Assembly: GCA_020740775.1 (NCBI GenBank)
Contig: JAHEWK010000008.1
Coordinates: forward strand, 2,294,001 to 2,358,000
Source: Ilyonectria destructans
Lineage: Eukaryota > Ascomycota > Sordariomycetes > Hypocreales > Nectriaceae
Direction of reading: 5' to 3'
Length of the DNA: 64,000 nt
This document shows positions 1 through 58,062 of this stretch, in pieces. Positions within the stretch are counted from its first letter, which is position 1. Each line of letters begins with the position of its first letter. The position numbers were made by a program, and so were the translations under genes. The notes below the pieces were generated by a model. It made no database searches. It was not told the DNA's origin and was given only the letters and a program-made list of their open reading frames with translations.

Positions 1-2257
1 ACCACTCCCTCCACGAATTCCAGGTGGGATTGGTTCGATCAAGCAGCACATTCGTAAGCCTGATCATATCCGCATCATTTGACATTCCCAAGTTAGCATG
101 GCGATACCATGAACCTGCTGCGTAGTCTCGGAACGAATTCCCAAGAGCGCCCATAGGTTCCCGAAGCGTGCCTTGCCAGACTTGCGGAAAATTGATGTAA
201 TGGAGACACAACTTGGCGAGTAGAGTGCTTTCAATCGCTTCGTTAGAAGCCCGCAATCTCTCGTTAGCCAGTAGGAGCTTTTCTTGAGCCAGAATGTTGT
301 AGAGGAGATACTGCTTGACCGAGAAATGTGTCAAGTGCACAGTCCTAAATGCTGGGGAAGGTTCCGAGGGTTGGCTCCGGACTTCTAAGAGCGGACCGCA
401 AAGATCCAGTATTTCGCTCTCGATGTAGTCATCATCAACCGAGTCAGGGAGTTCGTCGAGCGGGAAGTCGTCACAGTCCTCGTGAATAAGTACAGCCTCG
501 GTGATCTCACAAACCGTTAGGGGTCGCAGAGCAAACGCAGCCCAGCGTAACAGTGAAATCGCCCGAGTTTTATCCTCTTCCTCGAGACCTGCTATTTTCT
601 CCCAATTCCGATCGTAGAGGCGTTCGAGCCCGACGGGGGTTTTAGCGATAGCGTCCTCGAGCTGCTTCTTGGTTTTGCCTCTACGCAGATGGTTCTCCTG
701 CATCTTCAACCACAGAAACTGGCCCTCGCAGCGGTCGGCCATTCTCCCGGAAATTTCGCTTTTGATTGCTTCGCTCTTGTTAGATAGCTTCCTGTCGACG
801 ATGCTTTTGGAATACAACGCCGTGTCGGCTTGGACGTCTTCGGGCGATATCTTGTACTCGACAAATCCCGCCCTCGTGTTATCCATCAGAGCATGTCGGA
901 TCTCAGGCTCGTCGCGACTGACGATCAAGATCCGGGTGGTAGTATCTGCAGCTGCTTTCTTGACAGCCTCGAGAAAGGTCGCGACGGAGACGCTGCTGTT
1001 TTCAAGCTCGGCGCATTCATCCAGACCATCGGCAACCAGTGTACAGCCGGGTACGGCCTGGAGGAGCTCTCGGATGAGCTTGACGGCGGTCGCTCGCGTT
1101 GCCACCTGGTCCTGTTCGGCCTCCCATCTCTGGCGAACCAAGCCGAACGCGTCCGCGTGACGCGACACAATCTGAGAGATCCATGATCTTATGGCTACAA
1201 AGGGGTCCTCGCGGCTCTCAAAGTCGGATGAGAAGAATAAGTGTGCGATGGGCGTTTCCAGCGTGGAGGAGAGGTGTTCGACCACTCTGGCACATAGGAT
1301 TGTCTTTCCGAACCCGGCAGGTCCGTTAATCCAAAGCAGCTTGGCGGTCCCTGCCGGAAAGTCGGGTGAGAGCCAGCGGAGAAATGCGGGCTGGTCCAGA
1401 ATCCAGTCGCAGGTGCCGTCCAGCCTCTTCTGGATGGAGTCGTCGTAGAGTTCGTTAGTAGAGTGGCGACCGAGCAGCCAGGTGTGGACTTCACGTCGAG
1501 TCTCGGCTTCGCATGTTAGCTTCGGGACGGGAATGTGGTGGGGGTCCGTTATCTTACCTTTGATCTCGCCGTCTATCCGAGCTAGAATCTGTCGAAGCTC
1601 GGTTGACCAAGCGTGATGTGAGAATGTTCCTGCAAATCTCGGTTAGAACAGCACGACAACCGGCATCAAGCCAACATTCGCATCCGCACCTTGTAGGGCC
1701 ACAAGGGCATCAGTACCCCCGGAGTTTGGTCCATGTACCGGCCGTGTAGCCTTCGCGCCGTCAGGAGGAACCAAGTTGTGTAATTGCTGCACCACCCTCC
1801 CGAGCAGGTTGACCTGCTCTGTGCGTTCTCCCCTACCGCCTAACGCCCAAGCAAGCTTTCGCCTCTTGGATTCGGATGGTGCGGTGCGGGAAGGTTGGGC
1901 CTGGCTGGCGCGAAACAACTCATCTTGAGCAAGCCCGGTGCCGGCCAGGAGCGGGCGCCGAGAAGCGCCGTTTGCGTTGCAAATATTGTCGATGATCAGC
2001 AAAAGGTCCCGTACTGCCGAAGATATGTCCGGGTCATCGAGAGCCTGGTGGTGGTCGGCCGACGGCGTCCCTCGGTCGAACCCGACATGCCGGCCCCATT
2101 GCTCGAAGCGGAGCTTTTCAGCCTTGAACTGGGTGTCTAGCACCTGAGAATCAGCCCCGAAAGACCTGTAAGACTGCACCTTCTCGACGGCTTCCAAGCA
2201 GGAGCTGAAGAGGCCGGCAAGCCCAGCGATCCCAACGGCCAGTCCAACAGGCTCCAT
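1..2257 (-). CDS. HeLo-NACHT NLR-type receptor (3' end outside window)
   Basis: Predicted cytosolic STAND NTPase of the fungal NLR class. It reads from ATG at 2257 with introns at 1630-1689 and 1507-1557 (branch CTAAC in both) and is still open at position 1. Residues 1 to about 190 match the HeLo domain, the pore-forming cell-death domain of HET-S: it starts MEPVGLAVGIAGLAGLFSSC and carries a VQSYRSFG stretch. The third exon encodes a NACHT domain with P-loop GPAGFGKT and Walker B ADGLDEC, then a winged-helix-like region containing HLTHFSVKQYL. The family usually ends in ankyrin, WD or TPR repeats, which would lie to the left of the window. Expected role: a ligand-triggered switch that opens the HeLo death effector. 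Domain calls are firm; the ligand is unknown. Confidence 0.85.
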
Positions 2258-2963
2258 GGCTACGTGCTTTGGTTGCCGTGAATGAATCCGAGGCGGGGTG
2301 CCTCTTGTTATCGGTGGCCTGGTGAGGCAGCCAGATTTCTTTGCACAGCCACATACGGCAGCCTACATCATGCGCAGCTTGTTGCCCGCAGCATGCAAGT
2401 GCGGCCAACCTGAGGGGAAAGAGGTAGAACCCACCGATATGGAACGGATATTCAAAGGCTGCCACAAGGCACGCGAAAAGGTCATTGACTTTAAAGGCAT
2501 TCGAGAGGATCCACAGCGGTAAGAGTACCGCCGAGCAATGATCATCAATAAAGGTTTGGCTAACGCCCGGCCCTACCTAACCGTCACTCCCCCCCATCTG
2601 CACTTCCTGTGAGACCGTGCACTTGCTAACTTCATTCAAAGGCAAAAGCAGCTCGTGAACGCTCTCTAGCTGTCCTTTGATCAAGAATTCAAAACTATGT
2701 CCATGATCAGGTTCACCCAGGCGGCCGCACCGCGTTTCGGGCGGCCGCAAACGATCTCATAGGGACCCCTCGATGAGCAAAGGCGCAGAGGTCACTGACT
2801 ACGGATTCCATCTCACATCCGGCCTTGCTACTACTCGTCCTCCGTTTTGTCATCAAAAACGGCTTGATCGTCGGAAAGTAGTTTAAACTCCTCCCCCCTT
2901 GAAGGCACGGATTGACGTAGGATGTGCAGCTCTATCTTGAAGAGAGCAGATACTTCGGCATCC
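2258..2963. other. Intergenic, no gene seen
   Basis: About 0.7 kb between the HeLo-NACHT start and the stop of the patatin NLR. Short open frames here overlap each other on both strands and show no recognisable protein. It should hold the HeLo-NACHT promoter and the 3' UTR of the neighbour. Confidence 0.6.
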
Positions 2964-5900
2964 CTATTCAGGCGACTCGTTCGGTCTCTTTACACGATGA
3001 GATTTAAAGATTCCGCGGAACTTAGCTGCTAATCGTCCTGGCGCTTTCGGTCCGCCCGTTGACTTAGTTTCTTTGCTCTCTTTGTTCATGCTCATCTCTG
3101 CTAATCCGGTTAGTCCGCCTTTAGCAGTTAATAGAAAGTGGTGACTTGTGTTACCTTCGATGCGTTGTAAGGATTCCATGTTGCGCATGACCAGAGATGA
3201 TTTTAGATGGTTGGGTCCCAGGGTTGTTTGGAAACCATGTAGCGCCCGCCCATACATCTCCTCTGCCTCCTTGAACTTGCCTTGGTCCGAGTAGAGGATT
3301 CCTAGGCAGTGAACTGAGTCGAGAGTCGATGTGTGATGAGGTCCAAGCGCCTTCTCTCTTCCTTCTAGCGCCCGCTTATACATCTCTTCTGCCTCCTTGA
3401 ACTTACCTTGGTCCGAGTAGAGGATTCCTAAGTTGTTGACTGTGCCGAGAGTCGATATGTGATGAGGTCCAAGCGCCTTCTCTCTGCCTTCTAGCGCGCG
3501 CTCATACATCTCCTCTGCCTCCTTGAACTTGCCTTGGCCTGAGTAGAGGCTCCCCAAGTTGTTGACTGTATCGAGAGTCGATGTGTGATCAGGTCCAAGT
3601 GCCTTTTCTCTGCCTTCTAGCGCCCGCTTACACATCTTCTCCGCCTCCTTGAACTTGTCTTGGTTCAGGTAGAGGCTTCCTAAGTTATTGACCGTGGTGA
3701 GAGTCAATGTGTGATGAGGTCCAAGCGCCTTCTCCTTACCTTCTAGCGCCCGCTTATACATCTTCTCTGCCTCCTCGAACTTGCTTTGGTGCTGATAGAG
3801 GTTTCCTAAGTTGTTGACCGTCCTGAGAGTCGATATGTGATCGGGTCCAAGCGCCTTCTCGTAGCCTTCTAGCGCCCGCTCATACATATCCTCTGCCTCC
3901 TTGAATTTGCCTTGCCTTAAGTAGATGCTTCCTAATTTGTTAGCTGTATAGAGAGTCGATGTGTGATCGGGTCCAAGCGCCTTCTCCTTGCCTTCTAGCG
4001 CCCGCTTACACATCTCCTCTGCCTCCTTGAATTTGCCTTGGTCCGAGGAAAGGACACCTAGCATATGCAAAGAGTCCATCACTGATATATCGTCAATATA
4101 CCAAACATCCGCGCCCGCAAGCGCCTCTCGTATCCATCCTGCGCACCTCTCAACGTGCGGAAGAAGCTTCTGCTGGAGGATCCAATACTCCCTCGATTCC
4201 CGCATCGGCACCGAGAGCCCGACCACCATAAGCGCGAGCCTTGCCGACTCATGCTTCTGTTGGTCGCCGTCCAAAAACGACGACCATCGATGCACAACCG
4301 GGTGCATGGAGTAGCTGCCTGTCAATCCTTCCTGGGTTTCGATCATCGAGTAACGGAGAAGTAGGCCGATCGAATCTAAGAATCGCACCACGTTGCGAGC
4401 CATCTCCCCGAGCCAGTCGGGCCACCGGTCTGCCGCTCCCGCCGCCGCCGCCGCTCCAAGCAGACCGTGCCAAAGTTGCTTGTTGTCGAGAAAGGCCCAG
4501 AGTCGTAACAGATTAACAGCATCGGTGCTCTTGCTCTCAATCTCCTTGAACGAAACCATCCACGTTGTTGCAATGCTTCCCTGCTCGTAATCCAGAAGTG
4601 GGCGGCTCGATGCATCGCGGGATCCCATCAGCTCGTCCCACTGGTGTTTGTATATCTGCACGTACGTCGTTGCGTCGATGCCCTTTTCCCGGAGGTACGA
4701 GGCGGCTTGCGCCAGCGCCAGGGGCAGGCCGTCTAGCAGTTCGAGGAGCTGATCACAGTCCGAGCCTAGCATAAAGTAAGATTCCCATCATGCTTCAGTT
4801 GATGTATGAGACCACCAAAACTCACCGAGTTTGCCGCCATACCATTTCCCAAAAATAGTCCTGCTGAGACTTAGATCAACCTTAGCCAATCGCCTGGACT
4901 CGCCTAGCTGCGCAAGGCGCGAAAGCCGCGTCGTGACCAGTATTGCCCCGTGATCGCCAGGCAGGTAGCATCTCAGATCGTATGCGCCTGTCACGCCGCC
5001 TTGCTCATGGTCTTGGTCGACATTGTCAAAGATCAGCAGCCAGTCGCCGTTGTCAGGCCGCGCAAGCCACTCCATCACGCTCGCGACGGCGGCATCGAGA
5101 TCGTCCTTGCCGTGCGCCCCGGATTGGTCCCGACCTGTGCTGGGAATTTGCCCTTTAGGAATCCGTTTGATGCAGCTCGCAATGCTCCCTCTAAGACGGT
5201 CCTCCGACCTGCCGTCGAGCCAGAAGACCGAGCTGAACGTAGCCTGGTGGCGCCGGGCGAAATCGATAGCTAGCTGTGTCTTTCCGACGCCGCCGAGTCC
5301 GTGCAGCACGAAGACCTTTCTCGTCTGTCGGGAATGCGATCGGCGGGGGAGGAGGTATCTCTCCAGATCGGCGGTGTCAGACGGCCTTTCGACGAAGTTG
5401 CTCGACGCGGGGACACCGTCCAGGCTAAAGGGTGTCTTGTAGGAGCCGAAATCTTGCGACGATGGATTAGCGACGCCACGATGGGAGGTGGGAACGAAAT
5501 ATAGCAGAGAGTAGAATTAACTAACATTGCTTTCTCGCGAGGCCGTTTGCGCATGCCTTCATCCGTCTAAACACGTCCTGCGACGCGACATACCGGCCGG
5601 TTGCCGCCGCAATCTCGGGCTGCTTCCTCGACTCTTCCAGACCAACATTCTCGAGACCACGGACAACGTTGAAGCGGTAATAGCGGCCTTCATCGTCGAG
5701 GCTGGATTTGTCGCGACGAAACTGCTCCGCCGTCGTCTCTGTTTCTGTCGCAAGCTTCTTTAGGGTCGCTGCGATGCCGAGGACATCATCACGCACGGGC
5801 CTTATGGCGGGTACGCCCGTCCCGATCGACACCAGGCACCGAAGACTGCCCCGCAGCTGGTCGCCCCAGACGTCTTGAGCCTGGTTCCAAAGCGCGTACA

Positions 5901-6552
5901 CGGGATTGTTCGCTCCCAGGGCACCGTCGACGAACTGCTCTTGAAAGGGCCCGATTGCGATTGGATCGAAGAAGGTAGTCGCGGCAGACGTAGCGCGACA
6001 GGCTTGCCATATCTTGGTGGAGTCATAGAGGTGAGCCAATCCGCGGGGACGGTAGCTCGTTAGGCACACTGTGTCGCCAGTTTCTTTGCTCGTCGCGCAT
6101 ACGAAGCTTATCGGTTAGCCGTGCCGTAAGGAAATGAGGGAGTTGGAAACTTACACTTTGCAAGCTGTGTTGGGGGGATCTTGAAGAAGCGCGTCTTCGC
6201 CGTGGCCGTTGTCCACCAGGATTTGTTTGACTGCCTGCTCCAGCGCCGCAGTATCGAATCTGCCCTGGAACTGGCCGTTAATCTTGACCCTGTGGCTCTT
6301 CTTTTCGAACACCTTGTCGGACAAGGACGTGTAGGCAGTGATGCATTCGTCAATCGTCACTCTCAGGCGCCCCAGCATGATAGCGATCAGGCCGCCGGTG
6401 CTGGTGCCGCCGATCATATCGAAGTAGTCGCATGGCTTGGGCGGGGAGTCGGGGTCGATGGTAGACATGAGATTTTGTAGAATCATCAGCGAGGACAGGC
6501 CGCGAACTCCGCCGCCGTCAAGGGCAAGTAGGCGAATGTCATTTTCGGGCAT
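2964..6552 (-). CDS. Patatin-NB-ARC-TPR NLR-type protein
   Basis: Four exons with introns at 6107-6154, 5453-5525 and 4766-4825 give 1,135 residues. The N-terminus is a complete patatin phospholipase domain: oxyanion loop DGGGVRG, nucleophile motif GTSTG and catalytic-Asp motif DGA (in VDGALGANNP). An NB-ARC ATPase follows, with P-loop GLGGVGKT, Walker B LLIFDNVD and LVTTR. The C-terminus has seven 42-residue TPR units of kinesin-light-chain type (EAEEMYKRALEGREKALGP) and a basic tail. Such proteins are thought to sense a non-self ligand through the TPRs, oligomerise through NB-ARC and then hydrolyse phospholipid. An upstream in-frame ATG at 6588 exists; 6552 is preferred because MPENDIRLLALDGGG is the usual family start. 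It is co-directional with the NLRs on both sides. All catalytic motifs are intact. Confidence 0.9.
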
Positions 6553-6588
6553 GTTGCTGTGGAGAGCCGCCCTGGGAGAGGTTGGCAA

Positions 6589-9542
6589 GAGGGAAGCAAC
6601 GTGATCAGGCTGCCCGCGAACTTGGGCGGCTATGAATGAAGCGACCTTCTGCTCCCCATGTGGCGCATGCTAGACCAGCTAGCACAGTGTTACGCGGGGA
6701 TCCACGTATTAATTCGAGGGACTCGCAGGCAGGAGGTAAATGCCAAGTTCCTAGCTGATCTTGGTTAATAAACATGCCGAGACAGAAAGGCAGAAAGGCA
6801 GAAATGTAGAATCATCTCTGCGTGCTCGTCGTTTTCCGAAAGTGTAGCAGGCGGGTCATCAGCATTGAGCATACGCCGTAGTCCTAGCCCTCTAGCCTGA
6901 GAGTGGGGATGGGAACGTGAGAGACCCAGCCAAGTTCTGCCTAGTTCTGAGCGGATTTCAGCCACGTGACCGAGGTCGTGGCGGAAGCTGGTGGACCTCG
7001 TGGCTTCTTACGGGACGGATGTCCTCTGGCGCCAGTAAAGGTTCAAGCTTTGGTCTGTGGGGGCAGGCACATCGACCAAGAGACAATAGTGGACTTCAGG
7101 TATACAAAACAGAAGCTCTTTGCTAATGTATGTTGTTTCGTCCAAACGGATGACTGGTATTTGACCTAACACATGCGGTTGAAAGCAGACACCTTGTGCA
7201 CTCTATTCTAGGATGGCTTGAACTCCGGGCTGCTATGTAGCGGTTATGGCGGATACAAGTATGATGACCCCTCCTTTATCGAGATCTGCAGACGACTGCT
7301 ATTATGACTATTCTTAGATTTCAGAGGCCGTGCGACCCGTCCCGTGCCCACCAATCCGTGACAGGGTTTGAACGATCGCCCTACGCGTGCCACACCCTTC
7401 AGTCGCCCACGGAGTAGTGATCGAACGCGTCTACGACGCGCTATGCTCCACAGTAGTGCTAGGAGACCGCTGGCCGTGGACATCAACTGGACCAAGCGCC
7501 TCCATAGCACAGATTCTTGTGCTCATTTTCACTATCAGCCGTTGCCTCTCTCCCAAAATAGCGATGTACTGTGCCGGGCCAATCATTGCGAACTGCATGA
7601 AAGAGCTTTTGCCTCCCCGGCGGATGTCTAAGCCGCAACCCAGCCACGCTGCAGCTACGCTGGGCCTCACATGAATACCGTTCAATCCCCTCCCTCCCTC
7701 CCTCCCTCATTATTTAGGGCTGTTGAAGCGCCATCTTGATTCCCTTGAAAACTACTTCCCTGACTATCAGTGCGTTATCGTGTCCTATGGCCGAGCCTGG
7801 GTCTGAAGTATGAAGTTTGTGAGCTATGCGCGAGAGTCAAACGTGAGATCTGTACTTCGCGATACCACACATCCTGCAACATGTGAGCTCGCCGCGCATG
7901 ATAGGCAGTCAGACTAGTCGATCCAGATCGCATGCTAACCGCTTGCAAATATATCTGGACGGCGACAAAGCCAGAATGATGCGCGCCCGCTGCACAGGGC
8001 AGAAAGGTGTGAACCATCAATGTCTTCTACGGAGCATTCCATGGCACTGACTATCTGTCAACGGAGACCTGGAGGCAGGCGTATATATATATACATGGAT
8101 ATTTGCTCTTGTCGAAGACAACGCAATCCTTGCCGTTGTCGCTTACTGCGTCGTAGAGGAGGGCAGACGGTGCGTCGCCCGAGGATCACGTCATCGTCCG
8201 AGTTAACCGCGCGGCCTCCCACCGCCGATCCTCATGCCAAAAACCATAGTGCGTATGACAGTGATGTCCGTCCTCGTCAAGACCGAGAAGATGCTTCATC
8301 CGTGTCGGAAAGGCTCTCCTTGGCACCGGATGATCGGAAGCACAAGACCTCATTCACGAATTCTACACGTCTGGGGAGTTGAGTAAGCACTTCCGGCGTA
8401 AACATTTGCTGAATATACGGGACGGCGACAAGATCGAGTGACAGGTTTGTGATGAATCGCTCGGAATCATGCCATACGGGTCCATGGAACTGTATCTTAA
8501 CTTTCGTCTTTACGATCAATAGAAATCACTATCTTGTAATGTATGACCGGTCTACATTTGTATGGATGGATGTATAAAATGACACCATGGATCATTCATA
8601 CGTGACTTTCGTGTAGGTAAATAGCATTTCCCTTCAGCAACTTGACAGTAGCCGACGTCGGCATGGACTGGTCGCTCGCGACGTAACGTGTAGTGCGAAA
8701 GTTCTACCGGACCCACATCCCACGATCAGACTGCTTTATCCAAAGAGCTACCACTACACTACCAACCGAACGGTTCAGCAACGTCACCTATGACTCGGAG
8801 CTTAGCTCCATGCCAGCCGTGCTAAAGTCGACAGGTTGCTTTCTTCAGGACTAAACTGGGACCTGTCCCAATTTTGGGGCCGCGCACGCGAGAAGAGTAT
8901 GGGGCAATGCGGTGCTGGCGAACGATTGAGCATGTTCAGCATTGATGTTTTGATCATGCCTCGGATATAAGTCATTGAAATGTGGCCTACGGTACAAATT
9001 TAATCCATCTGCCGCAAACTACACACTCCGCTTATAATCACGAGGTCTACTATAAAACAAGGCTGGTGTCAACTTGCGTGGAGGGGGCCCACGCAAGCTA
9101 CGGACCGGTGGCCGTCTCTGAACCGCTGTGACGATCACCGATGTTCATTGGGGATAGTGGCCGGCGTATGTACGCTGTGAATATGCATGATGCGGGTCGC
9201 GTAGCCATCGACAACGCCTCCTTATGGGGGCAATTGAGCTCAGCTGCATTGGGGGCCCTAACCAAAGGGGACGATGAGTGATGGTCTGCTTGGCATGGCT
9301 TGTTTCATGGCTGAACATTTATTGAATTGAAGAAAGGGTGGCCATGCATGAGAGCAGAAAGATATAAGTACGAAGTTCTAACCAAAATAGCGCCCAGTTC
9401 AATCGGGTGCGAAGGCTTCGCAAAGCTTCAAGAGCCCTAAAACTAGGCCCCTAGCAACCTGCTTAAGACTGGGGACCACGACGCTGGGACGTAATGTTGA
9501 CCATTCCATTTTCAACTCAATCACCTCCTCGATACTCCTTAA
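6589..9542. other. 3-kb intergenic region
   Basis: I see no convincing gene in this interval. It contains one copy of a 307-bp dispersed repeat at 7100-7406, a run of CCCT repeats near 7690 and a short TA tract near 8084. Open frames are short, mutually antisense and lack domains. Confidence 0.6.
7100..7406 (+). repeat. Dispersed repeat, copy 1
   Basis: This stretch recurs in the same orientation at 20855-21161, starting at GTATACAAAAC in this copy (GTGTACAAAAC in the other) and ending at CAGTCGC. The copies differ by scattered substitutions and small indels, mostly transitions, and I estimate well over 90 percent identity. It holds no ORF. Its reverse strand includes a weak pol III B-box-like GTTCAAACCC, so a degenerate SINE is possible, but no A box is clear. 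Confidence 0.85.
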
Positions 9543-12500
9543 TTAATGATGGGTAGCTTGTGTGGAGGGATGCTCCTTACCGAGCACCGTTTCCTTCGAC
9601 TCCAGCGTCTGTCGATGCATCTGCTCTGCCTCCTCGTGCTTCCCCAACTTGTTAAACACGACTGTCAGGTTATTCATACTGTCAAGCGTGGAGGGATGCT
9701 CCTTGCCGAGCACCTTTTCTCTCAACTCCAGTGTTTGTCGATGCATCTGCTCTGCCTCCTCGTGCTTTCCTCTGCTGCTAAGCACGTTTGCCAGGTTGTT
9801 CATACTATCAAGCGTGGAGGGATGCTCCTTGCCGAGCACCGTTTCTTTCAACTCCAGCGTATGTCGATGCATCTGCTCTGCCTCCTCGTTCTTCCCTAAG
9901 CTGTCAAGTACGCATGCCAGGTTGTTCATGCTGTCGAGCGTGGTGGGATCCTCCTTGCCGAGCACCTTTTCTCTCAACTCCAGTGTTTGTCGATGCATCT
10001 GCTCTGCCTCCTCATGCTTTCCTCTGCTGCTAAGCACGTTTGCCAGGTTGTTCATACTACCAAGCGTGGAGGGGTGCTCCTTGCCAAGCACCGTTTCTTT
10101 CAACTCCAGCGTCTGTCGATGCATCTGCTCTGCCTCCTCGTTCTTCCCTAAGCTGTCAAGTACGCATGCCAGCTTGTTCATGCTGTCAAGTGTGTCGGGA
10201 TCCTCCTTCCCATGCATCGTTTCTTTTAACTCCAGCGCCTGTCGAAATGCCTCCTCGTACTTCCCCAACCTGTCAAGCACAAGTGCCAGGTTATACATGC
10301 TGTAAAGTGTGGAGGGATTCTCCTTGCCAAGCACTGTTTCCTTCAACTCCAGCGTCTGTCGATGCATCTGCTCTGCCTCCTCGTTCTTCCCTAAGCTGTC
10401 AAGTACGCATGCCAGGTTGTTCATACTGTCGAGCGTGGTGGGATCCTCCTTGCCGAGCACCTTTTCTCTTAACTCCAGCGTCTGTCGATGCATCTGCTCT
10501 GCCTCCTCATACATCCCCAAGCTGCCAAGCACGTTTGCCAGGTTGTTCATGCTGTCAACCGTGGAGGGATGCTCCTTGCCGAGCACCTTTTCTCTCAACT
10601 TCAGTATCTGTCGATGCATCCTCTCTGCCTCCTCGTACTTCCACAACCTGTCAAGCACGAGTGCTAGATTGTTTATGCTGTCAAGCGTGGAGGGATGCTC
10701 CTTGCCAAGCGCCTTCTCTTTTAACTCCAGCGTCTGCCGATGCATCTGCTCTGCCTCCTCGTACTTCCCTAAGTTGTCAAGCACGAGTGCCAGGTTGTTT
10801 ATGCTGTCAAATGTGGAGGGATGTTCCTTGCCAAGTACCCTTTCTTTCAACTCCAGCGTCTGTCGATGTATCTGCTCTGCCTCCTCGTACTTCCCCAAGC
10901 TGTTAAGCACGAGTGCCAGGTTATTCATACTGTCAAGCGTGGAGGGATGCTCCTTGCCGAGCACCTTTTCTCTCAACTCCAGCGTCTGTCGATGCATCCT
11001 CTCTGCCTCCTCGTACTCCCCTAAGTTGTGAAGCATGCATGCCAGGTTGTTCATGCTGCCAAGTGTATCAAGGTGCTCCTTGCCAAGCACCGTTTCTTTC
11101 AACTCCAGCGTCTGTTGATACATCTGCTTTGCCTCCTCGTGCTTTCCTCTGCTGCTGAGCACGCCGGCCAGGTTATTCATACTGTCGAGCGTGGATGGAT
11201 GCTCCTTGCCAAGCGCCTTCTCTATTAACTCCAGCGTCTGTCGGTGCATCTGCTCTGCCTCCTCGTACTTCCCCAAGCTGCTAAGCACGAGTGCCAGGTT
11301 GTTCATGCTGGCTAGTGTGTCGGGATGCTCCTTCCCTTGCACCGTTTCTTTTAACTCCAGCGTCTGTCGATGCATCTGCTCTGCCTCCTCGTACTTCCCC
11401 AAGCTGTTAAGTACGGATGCCAGGTTGTTCATGCTAGCAAGTGTAGAGGGATGCTCCTTGCCGAGCACTACTTCTTTCAACTCCAACGTTTGTCGATGCA
11501 TCTGCTCTGCCTCCTCGTACTTCCCCAAGCTGTTAAGCATGAGTGCCAGGTTGTTCATGCTGTCAAGTATGTCGGGATGCTCCTTGCCGAGCACCTTTTC
11601 TCTTAATTCCAGCGTCTGTCGATGCATCTGCTCTGCCTCCTCGTACTTCCCCAACCTCTTAAGCACGGGTGCCAGGTTATTCATACTGTCGAGCGTGGAG
11701 GGATGCTCCTTGCCAAGCGCCTTCTCTTTTAACTCCAGCGTCTGCCGATGCATCTGCTCTGCCTCCTCGTACTTCCCTAAGTTGTCAAGCACGAGTGCCA
11801 GGTTGTTTATGCTGTCAAATGTGGAGGGATGTTCCTTGCCAAGTACCCTTTCTTTCAACTCCAGCGTCTGTCGATGTATCTGCTCTGCCTCCTCGTATTT
11901 CCCCAAGTCTTTAAGCACGTTTGCCAGATTATTCATGCTGTTAAGTGAGGTGGGATGCTCCTTGCCGAGCACCTTTTCTCTCAACTCCAGCGTCTGCCGA
12001 TGCATCCTCTCTGCCTCCTCGTACTCCCCTAAGTTGTGAAGCATGCATGCCAGGTTGTTCATGCTATCAAGTGTGTCGGGATGTTCCTTGCCGAGCACCT
12101 TTTTCTTTAACTCTAGCGTTTGTCGATGCATCTGCTCTGCCCCCACGTACTTCCCCAAGCTGTCAAGCACGTTTGCCAGGTTGCTCATGATAGCAAGTGT
12201 AGAGGGATGCTCCTTGCCGAGTACCTTTTCTCTTAACTCCAGCGTCTGTCGATGCATCTGCTCTGCCTCCTCGTACCTCCCCAACCTGTCAAGCACGAGT
12301 GCCAGGTTGTTTATGCTGTCAAGTGTGGAGGGATGCTCCTCGCTAAGCACCTTTTCTCTTAACTCCAGCGTCTGTCGATGCATCTGCTCTGCCTCCTCGT
12401 ACTTCCCCAAGCTGTTAAGCACGGATGCCAGGTTGTTCATGCTGGCTAGTGTGTCGGGATGCTCCTTGCCGAGCACTACTTCTTTCGACTCCAACGTCTG

Positions 12501-13560
12501 TCGATACATCTGCTCTGCCTCCTCGTACTTCCCCAAGCTGTCAAGCACATTTGCCAGGCTGTTCATGATGTCCAGTGTGTCGGGATGCTCCTTGCCGAGC
12601 ACCTTTTCTCTTAACTCCAGCGTCTGTCGAATTATCTTCTCTGCCTCTTCGTACTTCCCCAAGCTGTTAAGTACGACTGCTAGGTTGCTCATGTTGCTTA
12701 GTGTGGTAGGATGCTCCTTGCCGTGCACTGTTTCTCTCAACTCCAGCGTCTGTCGATGCATCTGCTCTGCCTCCTCGTACTTCCCCAACTTGTCAAGCAC
12801 GTTTGCCAGGTTGTTCATGCTAGCAAGTGTAGAGGGATGCTCCTTGCCGAGCGCCTTTTCTCTCAACTCCAGTGTCTGTCGATGCATCCTCTCTACCTCA
12901 TCGTACTTCCCCAACCTGTCAAGCGCATTTGCCAGGTTGTTCATACTGTCGAGCGTGTCGGGATGCTCCTTGCCGAGCACTACTTCTCTCAACTCCAGCG
13001 TCTGTCGATGCATCTGCTCTGCCTCCTCGTACTTCCCCAAGCTGTAAAGCACGCTTGCCAGGTTATTCATACTGTTAAGTGTGGAGGGATGCTCCTTGCC
13101 AAGCACCTTTTCTCTTAACTCCAGCGTCTGTCGATGCATCTGCTCTGCCCCCACGTACTTCCCCAAGCTGTCAAGCACGTTTGCCAGGTTGTTCATACTG
13201 TCGAGCGTAGTGGGATGCTCCTTGCCGAGCTCCTTTTCTCTCAACTCTAGCGTCTGTCGATGCATCTGCTCTGCCTCCTCGTCTTTCCCTAAGCTGTTAA
13301 GCACGTTTGCCAGATTATTCATGCTGTTAAGTATGTCAGGATGCTCCTTGCCAAGCACCTTTTCTCTCAACTCCAGCGTCTGTCGATGCATTTGCTCTGC
13401 CTCTTTGTGCTTCCCCAAGCTGTCAAGTACGCATGCCAAGTTGTTCATGCTGTAAAGTGTGTCAGGATGCTCCTTGCCAAGCACCTTCTTTGTTAGCTCC
13501 AGCGTCTGTTGAAGCATCTTCTCTGCCTCCTGATAATTCCCTACTATTGAAAAGCCTGCG
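9543..13560 (-). repeat. 126-bp coding tandem array (TPR units)
   Basis: About 31 in-frame units of roughly 126 bp, each coding one TPR, plus a partial last unit. Blocks are duplicated: a three-unit block, with the distinctive GKEHPSTFDSINN unit in its middle, occurs twice, and a two-unit block near the 3' end is repeated almost exactly. This pattern points to recent unequal exchange or gene conversion. Confidence 0.9.
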
Positions 13561-18068: not shown

Positions 18069-18071
18069 TTG

Positions 18072-48762: not shown

Positions 48763-48862
48763 TCAAGCTTCTAGTTTTGACGTTTTTGCTATTGGTAGTT
48801 ACATTGATTTGACAATAAATACTCACGCTCATTACCTCTGACGTCTCCCCTTCGGCGCAAAA

Positions 48863-49912
48863 ATGGATCTGTTACCATTTGAGACGTTGTTTTCCATCGC
48901 CGGTTTGCTTCCGCATGCTGACCTCTGCCAATTCCGCCTTGTCAACCGCCGATGCGCAGCTCCGGCATATCCTCTCATAAGTCGTCATCTATTCTTACTC
49001 GACACATCTTGGTGCACACGGGAGTTTGTGGCCTTTGTTTGCGAACATGATGCATGCCTTCCATTTACAAGGGGTCTCACCATCTATTACGGGGATTGGC
49101 CTCGTTGCTCGAGAGATGACTGGGAGACGCATCCGCTGTTGCATCATGAGGTCCACCCACTTCATCTAATGGCAAGACGAGCGGGACAACCCACTGAGCT
49201 GACACATTTTATCGATCACGCGTATAAGCGGTACACGGAGTTTCTCGCTGCGGAAGAGAGTAGGTGCCCCTCGGGGGACAAACAAGCGCTCCGCTTCCTC
49301 CTTTCATGTATGCCAGGCATCCAGACCGTGACATTTCGGCCATACCATACTTCGCTCCGTCGTCAATCTCCTGGCCTGCCGTTCGCATCCTTCGCCAATG
49401 GTATTGGAATCCGACCATCCTTCCATAGCTTATCAAACGGCGTCGTTGAACGGTGTGCGGAACTAGCTCCGGCGTTTAGAACCTTGACAGAGCTCTGCGT
49501 TGAAGGGCGCTTGGACCTCGAGCGAGCAGCACTCCCTGAAATCAAGACCGTGCGGTCGCTCAAGATCACATCTGTCAGATCCATCCACGGCATTCGAAAT
49601 TTCATAGCTGCATTTCCGTGTCTGATCAAGTTCTCCTTTGCACCTACGACCATTGTATCACTTCCTCTCGGCCAAGTAGCATTGCCAGAGTTACGGTTTT
49701 TGTTCTTAAGCAACGTACGGGTCACTGAGGAAGCCCTGGCGCATACAATTACCAGTACAAAGTCGCAGGGTGTAGCGATTGAGTGTGATGGGGTCACGTT
49801 AGCAAACAAGACCTGGGAAGCGTTCTGGGCAGGGATGCAGCAATCTGGGCTTCGAGTCACTCTGACGACTGGGGTGAATGTAGATAGCTTTAGCGTATCT
49901 ATCTCTAAATAG
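48863..49912 (+). CDS. F-box protein
   Basis: A single-exon 349-residue frame. The first 40 residues form an F-box (MDLLPFETLFSIAGLLPHAD, then LCQFRLVNRRCAAPAYPLI), the Skp1-binding motif of SCF ubiquitin ligases. The remainder has Leu-rich stretches spaced like degenerate leucine-rich repeats (LTELCVEGRLDLERAALPEI, VRSLKITSVRSIHGI, ALPELRFLFLSNVRV), the usual substrate-binding region of fungal F-box proteins. The frame is intact. Substrate unknown. Confidence 0.8.
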   Translation: MDLLPFETLFSIAGLLPHADLCQFRLVNRRCAAPAYPLISRHLFLLDTSWCTREFVAFVCEHDACLPFTRGLTIYYGDWPRCSRDDWETHPLLHHEVHPLHLMARRAGQPTELTHFIDHAYKRYTEFLAAEESRCPSGDKQALRFLLSCMPGIQTVTFRPYHTSLRRQSPGLPFASFANGIGIRPSFHSLSNGVVERCAELAPAFRTLTELCVEGRLDLERAALPEIKTVRSLKITSVRSIHGIRNFIAAFPCLIKFSFAPTTIVSLPLGQVALPELRFLFLSNVRVTEEALAHTITSTKSQGVAIECDGVTLANKTWEAFWAGMQQSGLRVTLTTGVNVDSFSVSISK

Positions 49913-50909
49913 AACACTCCAGCATGCCGCGTGAATCGTGAGATGCAGGGACCAATGCTAACCAATTGGATTCTGTGCCGGAAGCCAAAAGTAGATCTCA
50001 AAGGAGGGTAGAGGTAAGCAAAAAGCTAGTTTCTGTTTTCTCGATGCCGCCGTGTTCCTGGGAACGGGGGGATACTGGTTTCTCAATTGCTACCGCCCTG
50101 TTCCTAGGAACAGGAGGATACTGGTTTCTCAATTGCTACCGCCCTATTCCTAGGAACAGGAGGATACTGGTTTCTCAATTGATGTCGCTTTGTTCCTGGG
50201 AACAGGAGGATACTGGTTTCTCAATCGATGCCGCCTTGTTCCCAGGAACAGGAGGATACTGGTTTTTCAATTGATGCCGCCTTGTTCCCAGGAACAGGAG
50301 GATACTGTTTTCTCAATTGATGCCGCCTTGTTCCCAGGAACAGGAGGATACTGTTTTCTCAATCGATGCCGCCCTGTTCCTGGGAACAAGGCAATACTGG
50401 TTTCTCAATTGATGCCGCCTTGTTCCCAGGAACAGGACGATACTGGTTTTTCAATTGATGCCGCCCTGTTCCCAGGAACAGGAGGATACTGGTTTTTCAA
50501 TTGATGCCGCCCTGTTCCCAGGAACAGGAGGATACTGTTTTCTCAATCGATGCCGCCCTGTTCCTGGGAACAGGGGGATACTGGTTTCTCAATTGCTACC
50601 GCCCTGTTCCTGGGAATGGGGGGATACTGTTTTCTCAATCGATGCCGCCCTGTTCCTGGGAACAGGGGGATACTGGTTTCTCAATTGATGCCGCCCTGTT
50701 CGGGGGGATACTGTTTTCTCAATCGATGCCGCCCTGTTCACAGGAACAGGGGGATACTGTTTTCTCAATTAATGCCGTCTTGTTCGTGGGAATAAGGCAA
50801 TGCTGTTTCTCACTCAGATTGTTGCTGGGTAGATAGCGGGACATATTATTTCGCATGTTTCCCATAGACCGTCAAACAACCTCTTATCACCTAAACGGTG
50901 TAAATTGCG
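49913..50909. other. Intergenic, mostly minisatellite
   Basis: Between the F-box gene and the PLP-like gene. About 780 bp of it is a 46-bp tandem repeat. Frames that run through the repeat are artefacts of its sequence. Confidence 0.7.
50038..50812 (+). repeat. 46-bp minisatellite, about 17 copies, palindromic core
   Basis: Each unit contains GGATACTGGTTTCTCAATTG, then ATGCCGCC, and a core CTGTTCCTGGGAACAG that is a perfect or near-perfect palindrome (CTGTTCC/GGAACAG). One unit near 50700 has lost most of the palindrome. Because 46 is not a multiple of three, coding through the array is unlikely. Confidence 0.92.
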
Positions 50910-53252
50910 ATGTTATTTCCATGGTTGCAAATACGATATGACACTACACGCGTTTCCTCGGCTCCAGTCCTGTGTGAGCATATGAGTTTTTATCGCGCAT
51001 TTGGGCAGACTCGTCAGTTCGTATTGAAAATATCCGGGTCTCTAGAGCAGGATTTTGTCGTGCCGTCGCCGAGTCTTAAGCAGGATGCACATGGCGTTTG
51101 GCTTGGAAGATTGGACGATTCAACTGCAATTGCCGAGTTTTGTGTTCCACTCATCTCGCAACCACCAGTACCTCATCTAGAGCAAAGCCGTACTCACATA
51201 CTCGATCAGCTTTGTGGCGAGGTGTTGGCCCCACTTAGTTCCCTAATTGTGTTGTCCGTAGATAGTCTTGGAGGATTAGAGCCTGCAGCGAAGCTGCTTG
51301 CGAGGTGGATGAGGTTTTCGCCCCTAACGGATGTCTTGCCACGACCCTGTTTGTTTGTATTCTCACAGAAGATGGTTTGCAATGAAAAGCAGTTTGAGAG
51401 ACTTCTGACAACTGAGCTCCTGGACTTATTACGTGGCCTTCATCCTGAGCAACCTTACTGCTGGAAGGAGGCCCGCAAGGTATGGACTAGTCATGTGGAT
51501 GGAGTTCAATTCGTTCACGAGGATTATTGGACACGCATCAACACGCACTTGAAAGCAGAATCGCACACACGCCTTTCTCAAGGGTTTGGATTTTCTAGCT
51601 TGAACTTTAAGAAGCTACTTCAGAAGGCAATTATCGCGTCCTGGGAGAGCGAGGAGGACTTTGACGTACTGAAAACCTTGGGTATTCGAGACCCGCTGTC
51701 TAGAGATGCAAGCAGGTATCTAGACCAATTCCTCACTTCTCACCACGGACTAAATCGTCTCGATATTGTTGCCTCATGTCTGGTTTACAGCGTCTATGCT
51801 CAAGCCTCCCATGGTCTGTAACGTGGCTTCTACTGACTGACATCATGCTGACATCACTTAGTCTTCCATCCCGACCTGGTGTACCAATCCTTCGTAAAGC
51901 CACTCCTATCTGCAGGAAGACAACAGTCGTCCCAGGCGACTGAAATACTCGGGCGTTACTTTTCATCATTTATTGAAGGGAACAGCAACGTTATTTCCAC
52001 GCGTCATTTGCAACGGATGAGAGAAAACCTACACATCAAAGCTCCCGGCTGCAACATATGCTTGCTGGGAACTCCGATACATGCTCTCAGCTGCGGTCAT
52101 CAACTGTGCAACTATTGCATCACAGCCCTTCGAGACAAATCGCGTTCCCCTTCTGGAGACGAGATATGCATTTTGTGTGATAAACATAACGAGGTCGCTC
52201 TCAATATACGACCGCCCGCAGCTGGAATCCGTACACTCGAGCTCCTCTCCTCTGCCGAGTCTCCCTTGAGGTTCCTACATGAAGTCCGAAAGCTACTGTC
52301 CGGGCATCTCGCAGACTACGTAGACTTAGTCATAGGTTCCGAAACAGGTGAGTCGGGCATGGCTTACTAGGTTGATCTGTGGCACAGACTGACAATACTA
52401 GCTGGCTCGGTGATACAAGGCTACTTCTGTGGGGGTTATGGGCTTCCACAACTTTCTAGAGAGCTACAAGTAAGCAAGAAAAGGTGGTATCAGTGGTCTG
52501 AGCCGGCCGCCACAAAAAACCGCGTGTGTATTGCCGTGTGCGCAAATGGATCTTTACTCCGCAGCTACGGCCCTGGAGCTACGCGTCGCCCCTGGGTCGA
52601 GTCACTCTTTCAGCGGTTCAAGTTATTGTTCCACAAGCCAAGCAATAGCGACGTTGCGGGGAAGGTGGATCTAGAGTGTAGGAGCCTGTGGGGAGCCCCA
52701 CCCCGGTTGAGGATTCAGCACCATCCGGAGCAGACCATGAGCGTGGAGGCGGTGGCGGGAAAGCTATTTTCCGCGCTGTTTTACGTCGACGTTTGCTCGT
52801 ATCCGGACCTGAGTGTCTCCCCTGGTTCTTGCGAAATCGAAGTCAAATGCCGTCTGGCACCGGGCAACCATTTAAATGCAGTCACCCACAGGTTACACGA
52901 CCAGGAATTGAGGGTCTATTACAGAGGCTGTGGTGAATGGCATCAGAAATATCTCTGCTTGACAAAATGGGATAGCCAGCTCCCCTTTTCCAGGAGATTC
53001 AAGGTTGAGGTCTTATCACTAGAATCGAGACTGGAACTTAGAATTGACAGCCCAACACAGATCGGTCGGCAGGAAAATAGTAGCAATACTCCTTGTAGAC
53101 TAAGAGACCTTGTGGAATGCATGGCTCAAAGTCACAAGGACGGCGCTAATGGCTTATCCCAGGCATGTGGAAACGCAGGAACGAAGGAGTCTGTGAACTT
53201 TGAGGATGAGATATGTCAGATAGATTCGCTAATAGAAGCCTTGAATGACTAG
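50910..53252 (+). CDS. Patatin-like protein (Starship PLP type) with degenerate catalytic core
   Basis: Three exons (introns 51814-51861 and 52348-52401) give 746 residues; ATG 50982 is a second possible start. Order of parts: an N-terminal helical region typical of large fungal PLPs (IVLSVDSLGGLEPAAKLLAR, GFGFSSLNFKKLLQKA, FHPDLVYQSFVKPL); a C3HC4 RING-like finger (CNIC, then CGHQLCNYC, then CILC); a patatin remnant; and the family's C-terminal domain (LFSALFYVDVCSYPD, IEVKCRLAPGNHLNAV). In the patatin part, the expected LDGGGIRG reads LELLSSAESP, GTSxG reads GSETAG with Glu at the nucleophile position, and the segment with the catalytic Asp is missing. The splice sites are intact, so it is an expressed-looking pseudoenzyme rather than a random wreck. 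Confidence 0.72.
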
Positions 53253-54244: not shown

Positions 54245-54823
54245 CTGTGTGTCTGTGTGTGTGTGTGTTGAATCTCTCTCTCTGAATGAACATTTCGACT
54301 ATTTATCTTGAAACGAGAAGTAGCCTCTATGGTACTTTGCGCCCTTGAGTTCTATAGCGAGACCCCGATTTACACGGATTGTGAAGGCGTAGCGACTCGT
54401 GATTGGATCGCGCCTATGAGCTGTAATCCATACCCTGCTCTAATTTTAGAATGAATACCAACCCTCCGTAGTTCCTAAATTAGAAGAACGGCGCCTGCAC
54501 CCGAGAAGTCGATTGGACGATGTGCCGACGGTCATGATTGGCCATAGAAATCTACATGTACAGGTGAATCGCCAGTTTGCAGCAAACTGTTAGCGGGGAA
54601 GCGCACGACTGTAGGGCGGCTCGGTGTCGAATCAGCTCTGCTTTGGCTTATCCCCGTCAAAGCTCGTAGAAGCGCCGGCTGAACTTTGGCATTCTCACCA
54701 GACAAAGCGTGGAGCCACATTTATGCTGGTTGTCGTAAGTAGATGTTAGAAGCTCCAACTTAACCCTCCGACATACCAACAATCTTGAACTTGTCGGTAT
54801 TTTGGCTCACAGCACGTCCGACC
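54161..54823. promoter_or_regulatory. Divergent region between MADS-like and ferric reductase genes
   Basis: About 660 bp. It starts with a GT/CT microsatellite (54180-54290) in the 5' leader of the MADS-like gene, followed by a TATA-like GATAAATAG (minus strand) near 54299-54307. The ferric reductase promoter and its unresolved first exon must lie in the right half. Confidence 0.4.
54180..54290. repeat. (GT)n microsatellite with CT end
   Basis: Long run of GT with interspersed GC and CT dinucleotides, ending in a CTCTCTCT tract, in the MADS-like gene's leader. Confidence 0.95.
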
Positions 54824-56890
54824 ATGAAGGCATCACGCGTGATCGCACGTTTTCGATTCTATCTCTTGCGACCATGGAAAATTCCCAGTCTTGTACCGTG
54901 GGGCCTTTCTCACGCACCGTACACCACTTGGGATGGTAAGACAATTACTTGGGGCCATCTGGGACTCCTAGGGCTCTGGCTTATAGCGAACATCATGATC
55001 GTCATGAACTGGAAGTGGCTGTCGCTACTTGGTCCACCGGGGAGGAGAGCGGCGCTGGCAGCTGCGTTTAACCTTATCCCGGTGATCCTTGGCGGTTATG
55101 TCGCCGATTTTCTCGGTCTATCGCTGCAGTTCTATTACCTACTGCATCATTGGCTGGCAAGGCTCGCGCTGTTGCAAACATTTGTTCACGCTGGCATTCA
55201 CATTCGCCAGCAAGAGAGATGGACGGTCCAGTCGGGGATGGGAATCGCAGTAGGTATACATTCATATCTCAGTTGGGGCCTGGGCTCATTTCTACAATAG
55301 GCGATGCTTCTCTTCATTATTATTACTTGCTCATCCATCTTCTACGTCAGAAGGAAATTCAACGTCATGTTTGTATGGTGTCACAAGGCACTGGCATATC
55401 TCTCCCTTAGCTTCCTTCTCGCACACCTTTGGCTCGTTCATCCACTTGATCGTCGTATAGCCGGAATTGTTTTGCTCTCTATCACCGCGATTTCTCTCCT
55501 TATTATGCTGCATCGTTGGTTTCGCCGCCAAAAAGCTCAAGCAGACGTTACGAAATGTTTGCTTATCGAAAAAGAACCCGACGCCGAGGAGACGGCAGAC
55601 AAGAAGACAAATTCAAAAGTCCTGGCAAAGATAGATACCGGGGCAGCTCGAGTCAAGTTTCGGCTTCCCATGGACATTCGTATCTATCCAGGCGCCTATT
55701 TCTACATCTTCTATCATCAGGAATCTTTTTGGAGGCGACACCTTGGGGTGCCTATGATGGTCTATACCTGGCCCATGTCAAGTCCGACTTACTGGCCTGA
55801 TGGTAAGAGTTCAGTATCCGAGCTAACTTTTCTAGTTGAAGACCGCCCATGTCTTGCTCCTCTACTGTCAGGAAGAAAGGCCAGTATCACAATTGACGGC
55901 CCATACGGTCGGGATCTTAGACTTGATGGGTACGACAATGTATTTCTTTTAGCTGAGGGCATCGGAATTGCTGCAGTGATCCCATTCGCATTCGCCCTTG
56001 CCCATAGAAGACAATACGACCGTCTGAGGAAAAGGTCACCCTTCCCCGGGTCGGATAGGCAACTCACGTCGCCACCCCAAATCGATATGGCCGCTGCCCA
56101 TAGTACCACGCCAACCACATCTGTTTTAGAACGTACGGAAGAAGACCATCGACGACTTCATCTTGACCAAACAAGACGAGTAACACTCATATGGGCGATG
56201 GAGGAGAGCTCCCAATTGGAGTGGGCACGGGACGAGATCAATCGATTGATGAACCTTGACGAACAATCGGTAGGACCTTGAGTCATTCCCTCTAACCACC
56301 ACTAACTGCGACAGGCGCTTCTTCATGTCTATGTTTACCATCCGACGGGGCCTGATCCGACTAAACCCAGCCGAAACAACGTCCAGCAGGAGCTAGAAGC
56401 GTGCAACAAGTTTCCCAAACATTGCAAACTCAAATATCTGCCGAAGAATCACTGGGCTGAGAGACTGCAGTTTCAGATGGAGGAATATATGAGGACATCA
56501 CCAGGTACAATAGTTACTGCTGGTAAGATAATCCCTTCTTCGAACCATACGAGCTTCTAATGTGTCCAAGTCTCTGGAACACCGGTGTTCCGGCAGGTAG
56601 TCAGAGACATCACCCGGGAGAACCCCCGAGCAACCTTTTACGAGCTCGAGCACCAGCCAGTTCCACGATCAAATCCCGGTATAACTCTCCCACCGGAGGT
56701 AGCGTCGAGGTTTCCGCCTCTCGAAAGTACCTTACCTGCCCATCCTCAGGACGTCCGGCGGCCTGTGCAAGTCACGCACAGAGAAAATGAGGCGAGCATG
56801 GCGGGCTCAATCAAGGTGGTGCAGAAATATGAGCAATATGAAATGTCAATGGTACAGAAGAGGCAGTTGACAGGAAATAATTCAGTCTAG
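54824..56890 (+). CDS. Ferric reductase, FRE family (first exon unresolved)
   Basis: Transmembrane reductase passing electrons from cytosolic NADPH via FAD and two hemes to external metal. Introns at 55250-55300, 56270-56314 and 56523-56570 give 640 residues from ATG 54824. Two H-x13-H heme-ligand pairs are visible (HHWLARLALLQTFVH and CHKALAYLSLSFLLAH). The FAD side has YPGAYFYIFY; the NADPH side has IDGPYGRDL, AEGIGIAAVIP and a C-terminal VSGTPVFRQVVRD. The decayed copy at 57448 has an extra N-terminal segment with an additional membrane span, so this model probably lacks its first exon; a GTAAGT donor at 54736 and CACAG acceptor before 54813 hint at where. FRE genes are a recurrent Starship auxiliary family. 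Confidence 0.82.
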
Positions 56891-56910
56891 TCGCTATCAA
56901 ATAGATCCCC

Positions 56911-57380: not shown

Positions 57381-57447
57381 ATTGGCCACATAAGCGATCG
57401 CTTAAATCAAATCCAGCAAGCCAAGTACTGAACACAGGAAACTGTTT

Positions 57448-58062
57448 GTGGACGCCTACGCGCCCGCTGCTCCAATAAGATCTAATTCCACTTTGGCAAT
57501 ATTGCACGACTCCACGGTGTGTAAATCCAAAGCAAGCTGGGAGAACCAGGCTTGCATTACCTTAGTTTGCGTCATTGGTGGATATTTGCTTTACGAGAGA
57601 CTCGGAGACGTATCCAACAACACAGCAGACCTTTGGATCGCGACCTATGGAACAATATGGCAAACCAACGGCAAGATCCGCAGTACAGTTATTGCATTAT
57701 TGAGTTTCCTGCAACCTTGGAGACTTCTCAAGCTTCTCATCGGGGGCCTGTCCCATTTAGCATATACATGGGATCACAAGAGGGTATCGGAGACTCAAAT
57801 TGCCCTCCTCTTGGCCTGGACTGGAGCAAACACGGTTTTCCTCGCATCTGATACTGAACTCTTAGGACCACGAGAAAAAAGAGCGGCTCTAGCAGCTGCC
57901 GTCAATCTTACTCCAGTGATCCTTGGTGGCAGAAACTACTTGATTGCCGACGCCATTGGTCCTTCAGTCTTACTATTTATTGCACCATTGGTTGGCGAGA
58001 CCTGCATTTGTAGAACTTGGATTGCACTCTATGAACTAAAGTCTCGAGCCGGCTCGAGATTT
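57448..58062 (+). pseudogene. Truncated, frameshifted ferric reductase copy
   Basis: The open part (from ATG 57448) corresponds to the N-terminal membrane region of the neighbour FRE: WQTNGKIRSTVIALL, then LLKLLIGGLSHLAYTWD, KRAALAAAVNLTPVILGG. It includes an extra upstream span (ACITLVCVIGGYLL) that the first copy lacks in its present model. A frameshift follows; the shifted frame reads YLLHHWLARPAFVELGLHS and stops. The rest of the gene is absent, and the sequence runs straight into the second palindrome, as if a deletion had removed everything between the heme region and the 3' palindrome. Confidence 0.8.
58042..58060. repeat. Perfect palindrome, copy 2
   Basis: Identical 19 bp to 56911-56929, 1,131 bp downstream, at the abrupt end of the ferric reductase pseudogene. 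Confidence 0.95.

What the first reader, a model, noticed from the sequence alone, without database searches (positions are those of the whole stretch)
1..58062. All four Starship auxiliary gene families in one 60-kb stretch, without a visible captain
The sequence shows NLR genes (1-16099), a patatin-NB-ARC gene and a large RING/PLP gene (50910-53252), a DUF3723-type gene (41195-44320) and ferric reductase copies (54824-58062). DUF3723, FRE, PLP and NLR are the auxiliary families reported to travel in Starship giant transposons. Together with small orphan genes, repeats and retroelement debris this looks like Starship cargo. I did not find the DUF3435 tyrosine recombinase or element ends, so the element would extend beyond the window or be a captainless relic.
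Basis: partly seen in the sequence, partly recalled or inferred. Interest (0 to 1): 0.9.

Follow-up and report, generated by a model that had tools for sequence, protein, structure and literature searches.

The report
Stranded Starship transposon with broken captain
In the fungus Ilyonectria destructans, a block holding an immune-receptor gene, a DUF3723 gene and an iron-reductase gene with a truncated second copy begins beside a broken tail of the recombinase gene that moves giant "Starship" transposons, so the block is likely a dead Starship rather than an ordinary gene neighbourhood.

Summary
The window is Ilyonectria destructans, C73:2294001-2358000. The gene list is partly right: three NLR genes, an open DUF3723 frame and two ferric-reductase copies are there, but the "RING/PLP" gene shows no patatin; the only patatin found sits inside an NLR. 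A captain is not wholly missing: a stop-broken, three-piece relic of a captain's C-terminal tail lies at 8117-8497 (+), pointing into the block. The DUF3435 profile matches nothing nearer than 549 kb. Window 1-7799 belongs to a separate, dispersed NLR-pair segment. A decayed Starship right of ~8.1 kb is likely but unproven (0.5): ends, empty site and strain polymorphism could not be tested, and NLRs are too common here to count. Side result: the DUF6601 gene stands head-to-head with an NLR; 6 of 33 DUF6601 loci do so, all divergently, and the one held paper naming DUF6601 lists it beside an NB-ARC-TPR gene in Curvularia. That possible new NLR-partner family is the more novel lead.

The parts
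1..2362 (-). HeLo-NACHT-ankyrin NLR (5' part; continues left to C73:2291017)
   Evidence: HeLo 73 bits, NPHP3_N 104 bits; ankyrin array in L035
2967..6669 (-). patatin-NB-ARC/AAA-TPR NLR; the only patatin found in the window
   Evidence: 6.5 units of 126 bp
1..7799 (.). right part of an 11.2-kb dispersed NLR-pair segment (C73:2290593-2301799) with breakpoints private to this copy
   Evidence: related copies on C13, C29, C19, C26 and partial ones elsewhere; other copies align to each other past the breakpoints
7799..8067 (.). copy of a 270-bp direct repeat (other copy C73:2287276-2287546), beginning exactly at the segment's right breakpoint
   Evidence: 91% identity
8117..8497 (+). relic of the C-terminal tail of a DUF3435 captain, three pieces in two frames with stops
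   Evidence: tblastn E 1e-22 (C33 captain tail) and 1e-13 (C26 captain tail); neither hits the reversed control at E<=1, and (62% identity, E 4.9e-17)
9546..15798 (-). alpha/beta-hydrolase-NB-ARC-TPR NLR
16372..17596 (+). DUF6601 gene, head-to-head with the NLR (607 bp between first Met codons); hydrophobic C-terminal stretch, two long C-terminal helices predicted
   Evidence: PF20246 319 bits; start from database model P0027; hydropathy; AF2 mean pLDDT 80.6
19216..20857 (.). multi-copy dispersed repeat (about 1.6 kb)
   Evidence: eight full-length matches at 85-89%, more at 69%
25074..25835 (-). Nuc_deoxyri_tr2 frame
   Evidence: 54.8 bits
38599..39525 (+). ankyrin-repeat frame
   Evidence: Ank_2 90 bits
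41198..44509 (-). DUF3723 gene, open 1104-aa frame
   Evidence: 201 bits; 93% over 91% of the query to I. robusta AUP68_06418
48842..49909 (+). F-box-like frame (sub-threshold)
50904..53249 (+). RING-like gene (sub-threshold RING), no patatin
   Evidence: one homologue, FMAN_07326, 51%
54764..56887 (+). ferric reductase copy 1, probably spliced; right end approximate, placed by eye
57406..58068 (+). ferric reductase copy 2, truncated (N-terminal membrane part only)
   Evidence: 44% over 104 aa to copy 1, E 2e-15; no match to copy 1's NAD-binding exon

Best explanation
The stretch from window base ~8,100 rightwards is likely the stranded remnant of a Starship giant transposon in Ilyonectria destructans: a stop-broken tail of a captain recombinase gene lies at its left edge, on the strand that reads into a block carrying an NLR gene, a DUF3723 gene and two ferric-reductase copies. 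[quoted passage not shown] Here the captain would have lost its catalytic part (inferred), perhaps when the neighbouring 11.2-kb NLR-pair segment and its flanking 270-bp repeats were rearranged against it (inferred from the breakpoint at base 7799, about 0.3 kb left of the relic), leaving the cargo immobile. The HeLo-NACHT and patatin-NB-ARC NLRs left of base 7799 then would not belong to the element.
For: Captain-tail relic, + strand, E 1e-22 with the tail of the C33 DUF3435 locus and 1e-13 with the C26 locus; neither query hits the reversed 294-kb control at E<=1; a third captain locus (C26:92592) also hits it, E 1e-10. Captain loci are rare: 15 of the 104 matches, at 12 loci, reach the tail; one search has 10 PF11917 matches at 8 loci; together 15 distinct loci, and a random 64-kb window holds one with probability 0.013. 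2 of the 4 DUF3723 loci (C73 here, 34 kb; C3, 29 kb, same strand as its captain) have a captain locus within 35 kb; chance 0.0013 under a uniform genome, 0.029 if captains fall only in a fifth of it (the 35-kb limit was chosen after seeing the distances). [quoted passage not shown] Patchy cargo: the RING gene has 1 relative in the protein search (F. mangiferae, 51%), and the DUF6601 gene's best relative is F. falciforme 80% while the best listed I. robusta one is 59% (best 120 of 1,272). GC is 0.485-0.521 in every 4-kb block from C73:2314001 to 2386000, against 0.511-0.589 for C73:2258001-2290000, where the conserved families HAT_KAT11 and Opi1 lie about 17 and 28 kb left of the NLR segment.
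Against: No DUF3435 profile match in the window; the nearest on the contig is 549 kb left, weak (31 bits) and on the strand that reads away. The relic is only 381 bp and covers no catalytic part; other captain pieces from this genome find nothing convincing in the 294 kb. No element ends, target duplication or empty site could be sought. DUF3723 has a 93% relative in I. robusta, so that gene is not private. The other two DUF3723 loci have no captain within 1 Mb on their contigs, and no NAD_binding_6 hit lies near the other three DUF3723 loci. NLRs are abundant everywhere. Low GC is not special to the block: C73:2150001-2186000 and 2230001-2258000 are 0.44-0.51. In Gaeumannomyces DUF3723, FRE and PLP were absent from predicted Starships (PMC12134995), so these families are not a reliable sign either way. 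No RIP signal. Relics of mobile elements may simply collect in such accessory tracts.
Confidence: 0.5

Rival explanations
1. An ordinary accessory, NLR-rich chromosomal tract in which a captain fragment, DUF3723 and ferric-reductase genes came together independently; there was never one element spanning them.
For: 8 of the 150 listed NACHT hits lie on C73 between 2.29 and 2.74 Mb; the left 7.8 kb is a patchwork of duplicated and rearranged segments; most captain loci have no DUF3723 near.
Against: Captain loci and DUF3723 are both rare and co-occur at 2 of 4 DUF3723 loci; the relic's orientation and its place at the edge fit a 5' end.
Confidence: 0.36
2. An old, vertically inherited gene block of the genus, with the captain tail a later unrelated insertion.
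For: DUF3723 93% to I. robusta on a 7.6-Mb contig; open DUF3723 frame; no RIP.
Against: DUF6601 and the RING gene show no close I. robusta relative in the searches made (both listings capped).
Confidence: 0.1
3. Inner part of a much larger Starship whose intact captain lies outside the fetched flanks.
For: Starships reach about 700 kb (PMC12134995 abstract); low GC runs on past the window.
Against: Whole-genome searches with PF11917 and with a captain frame: none to the right on C73, and the only left one (C73:1744936) reads away from the window.
Confidence: 0.04

Closest known systems
Starship elements, derelict kind (a captainless 'Derelict' of Macrophomina is mentioned in PMC12134995)
   Same: accessory families (NLR, DUF3723, FRE) in a long block; captain remains at one edge reading inward
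   Different: captain reduced to a 0.4-kb tail; no ends, no target duplication, no strain polymorphism shown
Candidate Starship on C3 of the same genome (C3 about 75-108 kb)
   Same: captain and DUF3723 about 29 kb apart (window: 34 kb)
   Different: C3 captain matches most of the DUF3435 profile (positions 6-418 in two pieces, two TAA inside the first); no FRE or patatin hit near it
Fungal STAND/effector gene couples (nwd2/het-S; PMC3321046)
   Same: DUF6601 gene stands divergently next to an NLR, at several loci with at least two NLR types
   Different: no function of DUF6601 known to me; no amyloid motif or cell-death activity tested

Membership tests
Starship (working element) | intact DUF3435 captain as first gene | tested here: not met
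   no PF11917 hit in the window; nearest 549 kb away, reading away
Starship (derelict remnant) | captain remains at one edge, reading inward | tested here: met
   tail relic 8117-8497 (+), E 1e-22; catalytic part not found; that this is the element's edge is inferred
Starship (derelict remnant) | accessory families DUF3723, FRE, PLP, NLR | tested here: inconclusive
   three of four right of the relic (NLR, DUF3723, FRE); patatin only within an NLR left of it
Starship (derelict remnant) | defined ends with target-site duplication or terminal repeats | not testable with these tools
   no empty site or sister-strain DNA available
Starship (derelict remnant) | presence/absence polymorphism among strains or species | tested here: inconclusive
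   protein level only: DUF3723 present in I. robusta at 93%, DUF6601 best listed 59%, RING gene no I. robusta hit
STAND/effector gene couple (nwd2/het-S type) | partner gene kept next to NLR genes | tested here: inconclusive
   6 of 33 DUF6601 loci within 2.0-2.7 kb of an NLR domain, all divergent, pairs not all independent; 26 of 33 have no NACHT hit within 10 kb; Curvularia clavata neighbours
STAND/effector gene couple (nwd2/het-S type) | shared amyloid or other signalling motif between NLR N-terminus and partner | not tested
   -
STAND/effector gene couple (nwd2/het-S type) | partner triggers cell death when the NLR is activated | not testable with these tools
   -

The most novel reading that the evidence does not exclude
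DUF6601 (PF20246) is an unrecognised NLR partner: a membrane-anchored protein encoded head-to-head with fungal NLRs of different make (hydrolase-NB-ARC-TPR here, PNP-NACHT on C28 and C40), forming a new class of receptor/executor couple that is scattered through fungal genomes with NLR tracts and lies inside this Starship remnant.
Probability: 0.3. Interest if true: 0.65.

Novelty: new member of a known kind. Interest (0 to 1): 0.4.

Why it matters
If right, it adds a decayed Starship with NLR, DUF3723 and FRE genes in Ilyonectria, a genus for which my one search for Starship papers found none, and shows that captainless cargo can be traced by a captain's C-terminal tail that the DUF3435 profile misses. 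The DUF6601-NLR pairing would give a testable function to a widespread fungal protein family that one paper of the held library names.

Full report
Where this is. The DUF6601 protein of the window is 100% identical, over 97% of the frame, to Ilyonectria destructans EDB80DRAFT_717233 on a contig of 3,239,850 bases, the length of the contig C73 that holds the window. The window is C73:2294001-2358000 of a 71.67-Mb, 74-contig assembly.

What the sequence holds. Three NLR genes lie on the minus strand: HeLo-NACHT-ankyrin, running out of the window to the left; patatin-NB-ARC/AAA-TPR at 6669-2967; and alpha/beta-hydrolase-NB-ARC-TPR at 15798-9546, with 31.6 units of 126 bp at 83% match. DUF3723 is an open 1104-aa frame at 41198-44509. 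A ferric reductase starts at 54764, and a truncated paralogue (44% over 104 aa, E 2e-15) lies at 57406-58068. The claimed RING/PLP gene has a sub-threshold RING and no patatin, even when read through its in-frame stops, and only one homologue, Fusarium mangiferae FMAN_07326 at 51% (7,997 candidates scored).

The captain. The Pfam profile for DUF3435 gives 10 matches in the genome (8 loci) and none in the window; the nearest on C73 is 549 kb to the left, weak, and on the minus strand. But captain frames from the same genome, searched by tblastn against the window with 200 kb of left flank and 30 kb of right flank, find one clear place: window 8117-8497, plus strand, in three collinear pieces in two frames with stops. 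The pieces are 63%, 38% and 67% identical to the C-terminal tail of the C33 captain (combined E 1e-22), and two of them also match the C26 captain tail (E 1e-13); neither tail hits the reversed sequence at E<=1. The whole-genome search with the C33 frame (404 aa) gave 104 matches. 89 of them lie within its first ~210 residues, which belong to a repeated frame of unidentified kind; 15 reach the tail, at 12 loci, this one included. With the three further DUF3435 loci that makes 15 captain loci. A random 64-kb window would hold one with probability 0.013; 2 of 4 DUF3723 loci have one within 35 kb, chance 0.0013 under uniformity and 0.029 if captains are confined to a fifth of the genome. The 35-kb limit was set after seeing the data. 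[quoted passage not shown]

What lies left of it. Window 1-7799 continues left to C73:2290593 and is an 11.2-kb copy of a dispersed segment carrying the HeLo-NACHT-ankyrin and patatin-NB-ARC-TPR pair. Related copies lie on C13 and C29 (81-96% by piece), more diverged or partial ones on C19 and C26, and single-gene or fragment copies on C16, C35, C69, C15, C28 and others. At the left breakpoint the seven other copies fetched keep aligning to each other beyond the point where C73 stops; at the right, C13, C29, C26 and C11 do so. The breakpoints are therefore private to this copy: it was cut out of a larger block and rearranged. A PDDEXK_12 gene (482 aa) that lies beyond the right end in C13 and C29 lies left of the segment here. 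A 270-bp direct repeat (91%) flanks the whole on C73, its right copy starting exactly at 7799. The captain tail starts 50 bases after that repeat. I infer, without proof, that this rearrangement removed the rest of the captain.

Surroundings. Conserved families HAT_KAT11 (C73:2271753-2273561) and Opi1 (2261312-2262655) lie left; a JmjC gene is right. GC is 0.485-0.521 in each 4-kb block from 2314001 to 2386000 against 0.511-0.589 for 2258001-2290000, but the left flank has low-GC stretches of its own (2150001-2186000 and 2230001-2258000), so this is weak evidence; RIP indices are negative throughout. Protein searches suggest patchy content: DUF3723 has a 93% relative in I. robusta, DUF6601's best listed I. 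robusta relative is 59% against 80% in F. falciforme (best 120 of 1,272 listed), and the RING gene has no I. robusta hit. This is a mixed picture. It does not show an insertion boundary, and it speaks against a very recent arrival of the DUF3723 gene.

Verdict on the Starship. Likely a derelict Starship to the right of 8.1 kb, confidence 0.5. The feature that defines a working Starship, an intact captain, was tested and not met. Element ends and empty site could not be tested. The main rival, a patchwork accessory tract without a single element, keeps 0.36. In Gaeumannomyces, DUF3723, FRE and PLP were absent from predicted Starships and one NLR was found (PMC12134995), so the gene list alone cannot decide.

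A second result. The DUF6601 gene (319 bits) is divergent from the hydrolase-NB-ARC NLR, with 607 bp between the two first Met codons (the DUF6601 start is taken from the database model). Of 33 merged DUF6601 loci in the genome (37 matches), 5 lie within 2.1-2.7 kb of a NACHT hit, all divergent; random placement gives 1.08 within 3.5 kb, and 26 of 10,000 shuffles reach 5. At 10 kb it is 7 (two of them tandem) against 2.7, reached by 104 shuffles; 26 of 33 loci have no NACHT hit within 10 kb (150 NACHT hits used of 303 candidates, contig lengths partly lower bounds). The window's own NB-ARC pair, 2.03 kb by subtraction, makes 6 of 33, all divergent; it was not part of the shuffles, and no other DUF6601 locus has an NB-ARC hit that near. 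The pairs are not all independent: the two I could read (C28, C40) have alike PNP_UDP_1-NACHT receptors and DUF6601 genes that look degenerate. Outside this genus, the one paper of the held library that names DUF6601 lists it in Curvularia clavata directly beside an NB-ARC-TPR gene, in a tract with other NB-ARC, HET and ankyrin genes (table passage of PMC10512319; orientation not seen). Fungal STAND/effector couples such as nwd2/het-S are adjacent genes, divergent in Podospora and in either orientation elsewhere (PMC3321046, passages). The DUF6601 model (mean pLDDT 80.6) ends in two long helices and has no clear PDB relative. That DUF6601 is an NLR partner acting at a membrane is an inference.

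Noticed in passing
window 9546-17596; C73:2538189-2542101; C11:1027234-1030969; C35:37259-40549; C28:210375-213801; C40:118407-121117: DUF6601 genes stand head-to-head with NLR genes at six loci, all divergent, domain hits 2.0-2.7 kb apart.
   Followed up: partly
C73:2290593-2301799 (window 1-7799): 11.2-kb HeLo-NACHT-ankyrin plus patatin-NB-ARC-TPR pair, with related copies or parts at many unlinked sites; breakpoints private to the window copy.
   Followed up: partly
C73:2287276-2287546 and window 7799-8067: 270-bp direct repeats, 91% alike, flanking a PDDEXK_12 gene and the NLR-pair segment.
   Followed up: partly
C9:1141192-1142285, C28:99747-100843, C15:541655-542784: Captain tails each followed about 0.6 kb downstream by a DUF6601 fragment on the opposite strand: three like arrangements (two of the three fragments are below the family cut-off).
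   Followed up: no
C3:75547-107928: DUF3723 (1040-aa open frame) about 29 kb from a captain on the same strand; candidate Starship.
   Followed up: no
C11:1027234-1082820: NACHT, DUF6601, a patatin fragment and a stop-broken DUF3723 gene within 56 kb: much the same gene set as the window.
   Followed up: no
Fusarium nygamai FNYG_08611 and FNYG_08631: DUF3723 and DUF6601 relatives 20 locus tags apart, both listed with a longest contig of 480,817 bases.
   Followed up: no
window 56911-56928 and 58042-58059: Identical 18-bp palindrome TCTCGAGCCGGCTCGAGA on both sides of the truncated ferric-reductase copy.
   Followed up: no
window 58841-62287: 1148-aa open frame with a long Gly/Arg/Asp-rich tract and about 11 copies of a 66-bp (22-aa) repeat; no Pfam match to the whole frame.
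   Followed up: no
window 50043-50792: 46-bp minisatellite, 16.5 copies at 87% match, just upstream of the RING gene.
   Followed up: no
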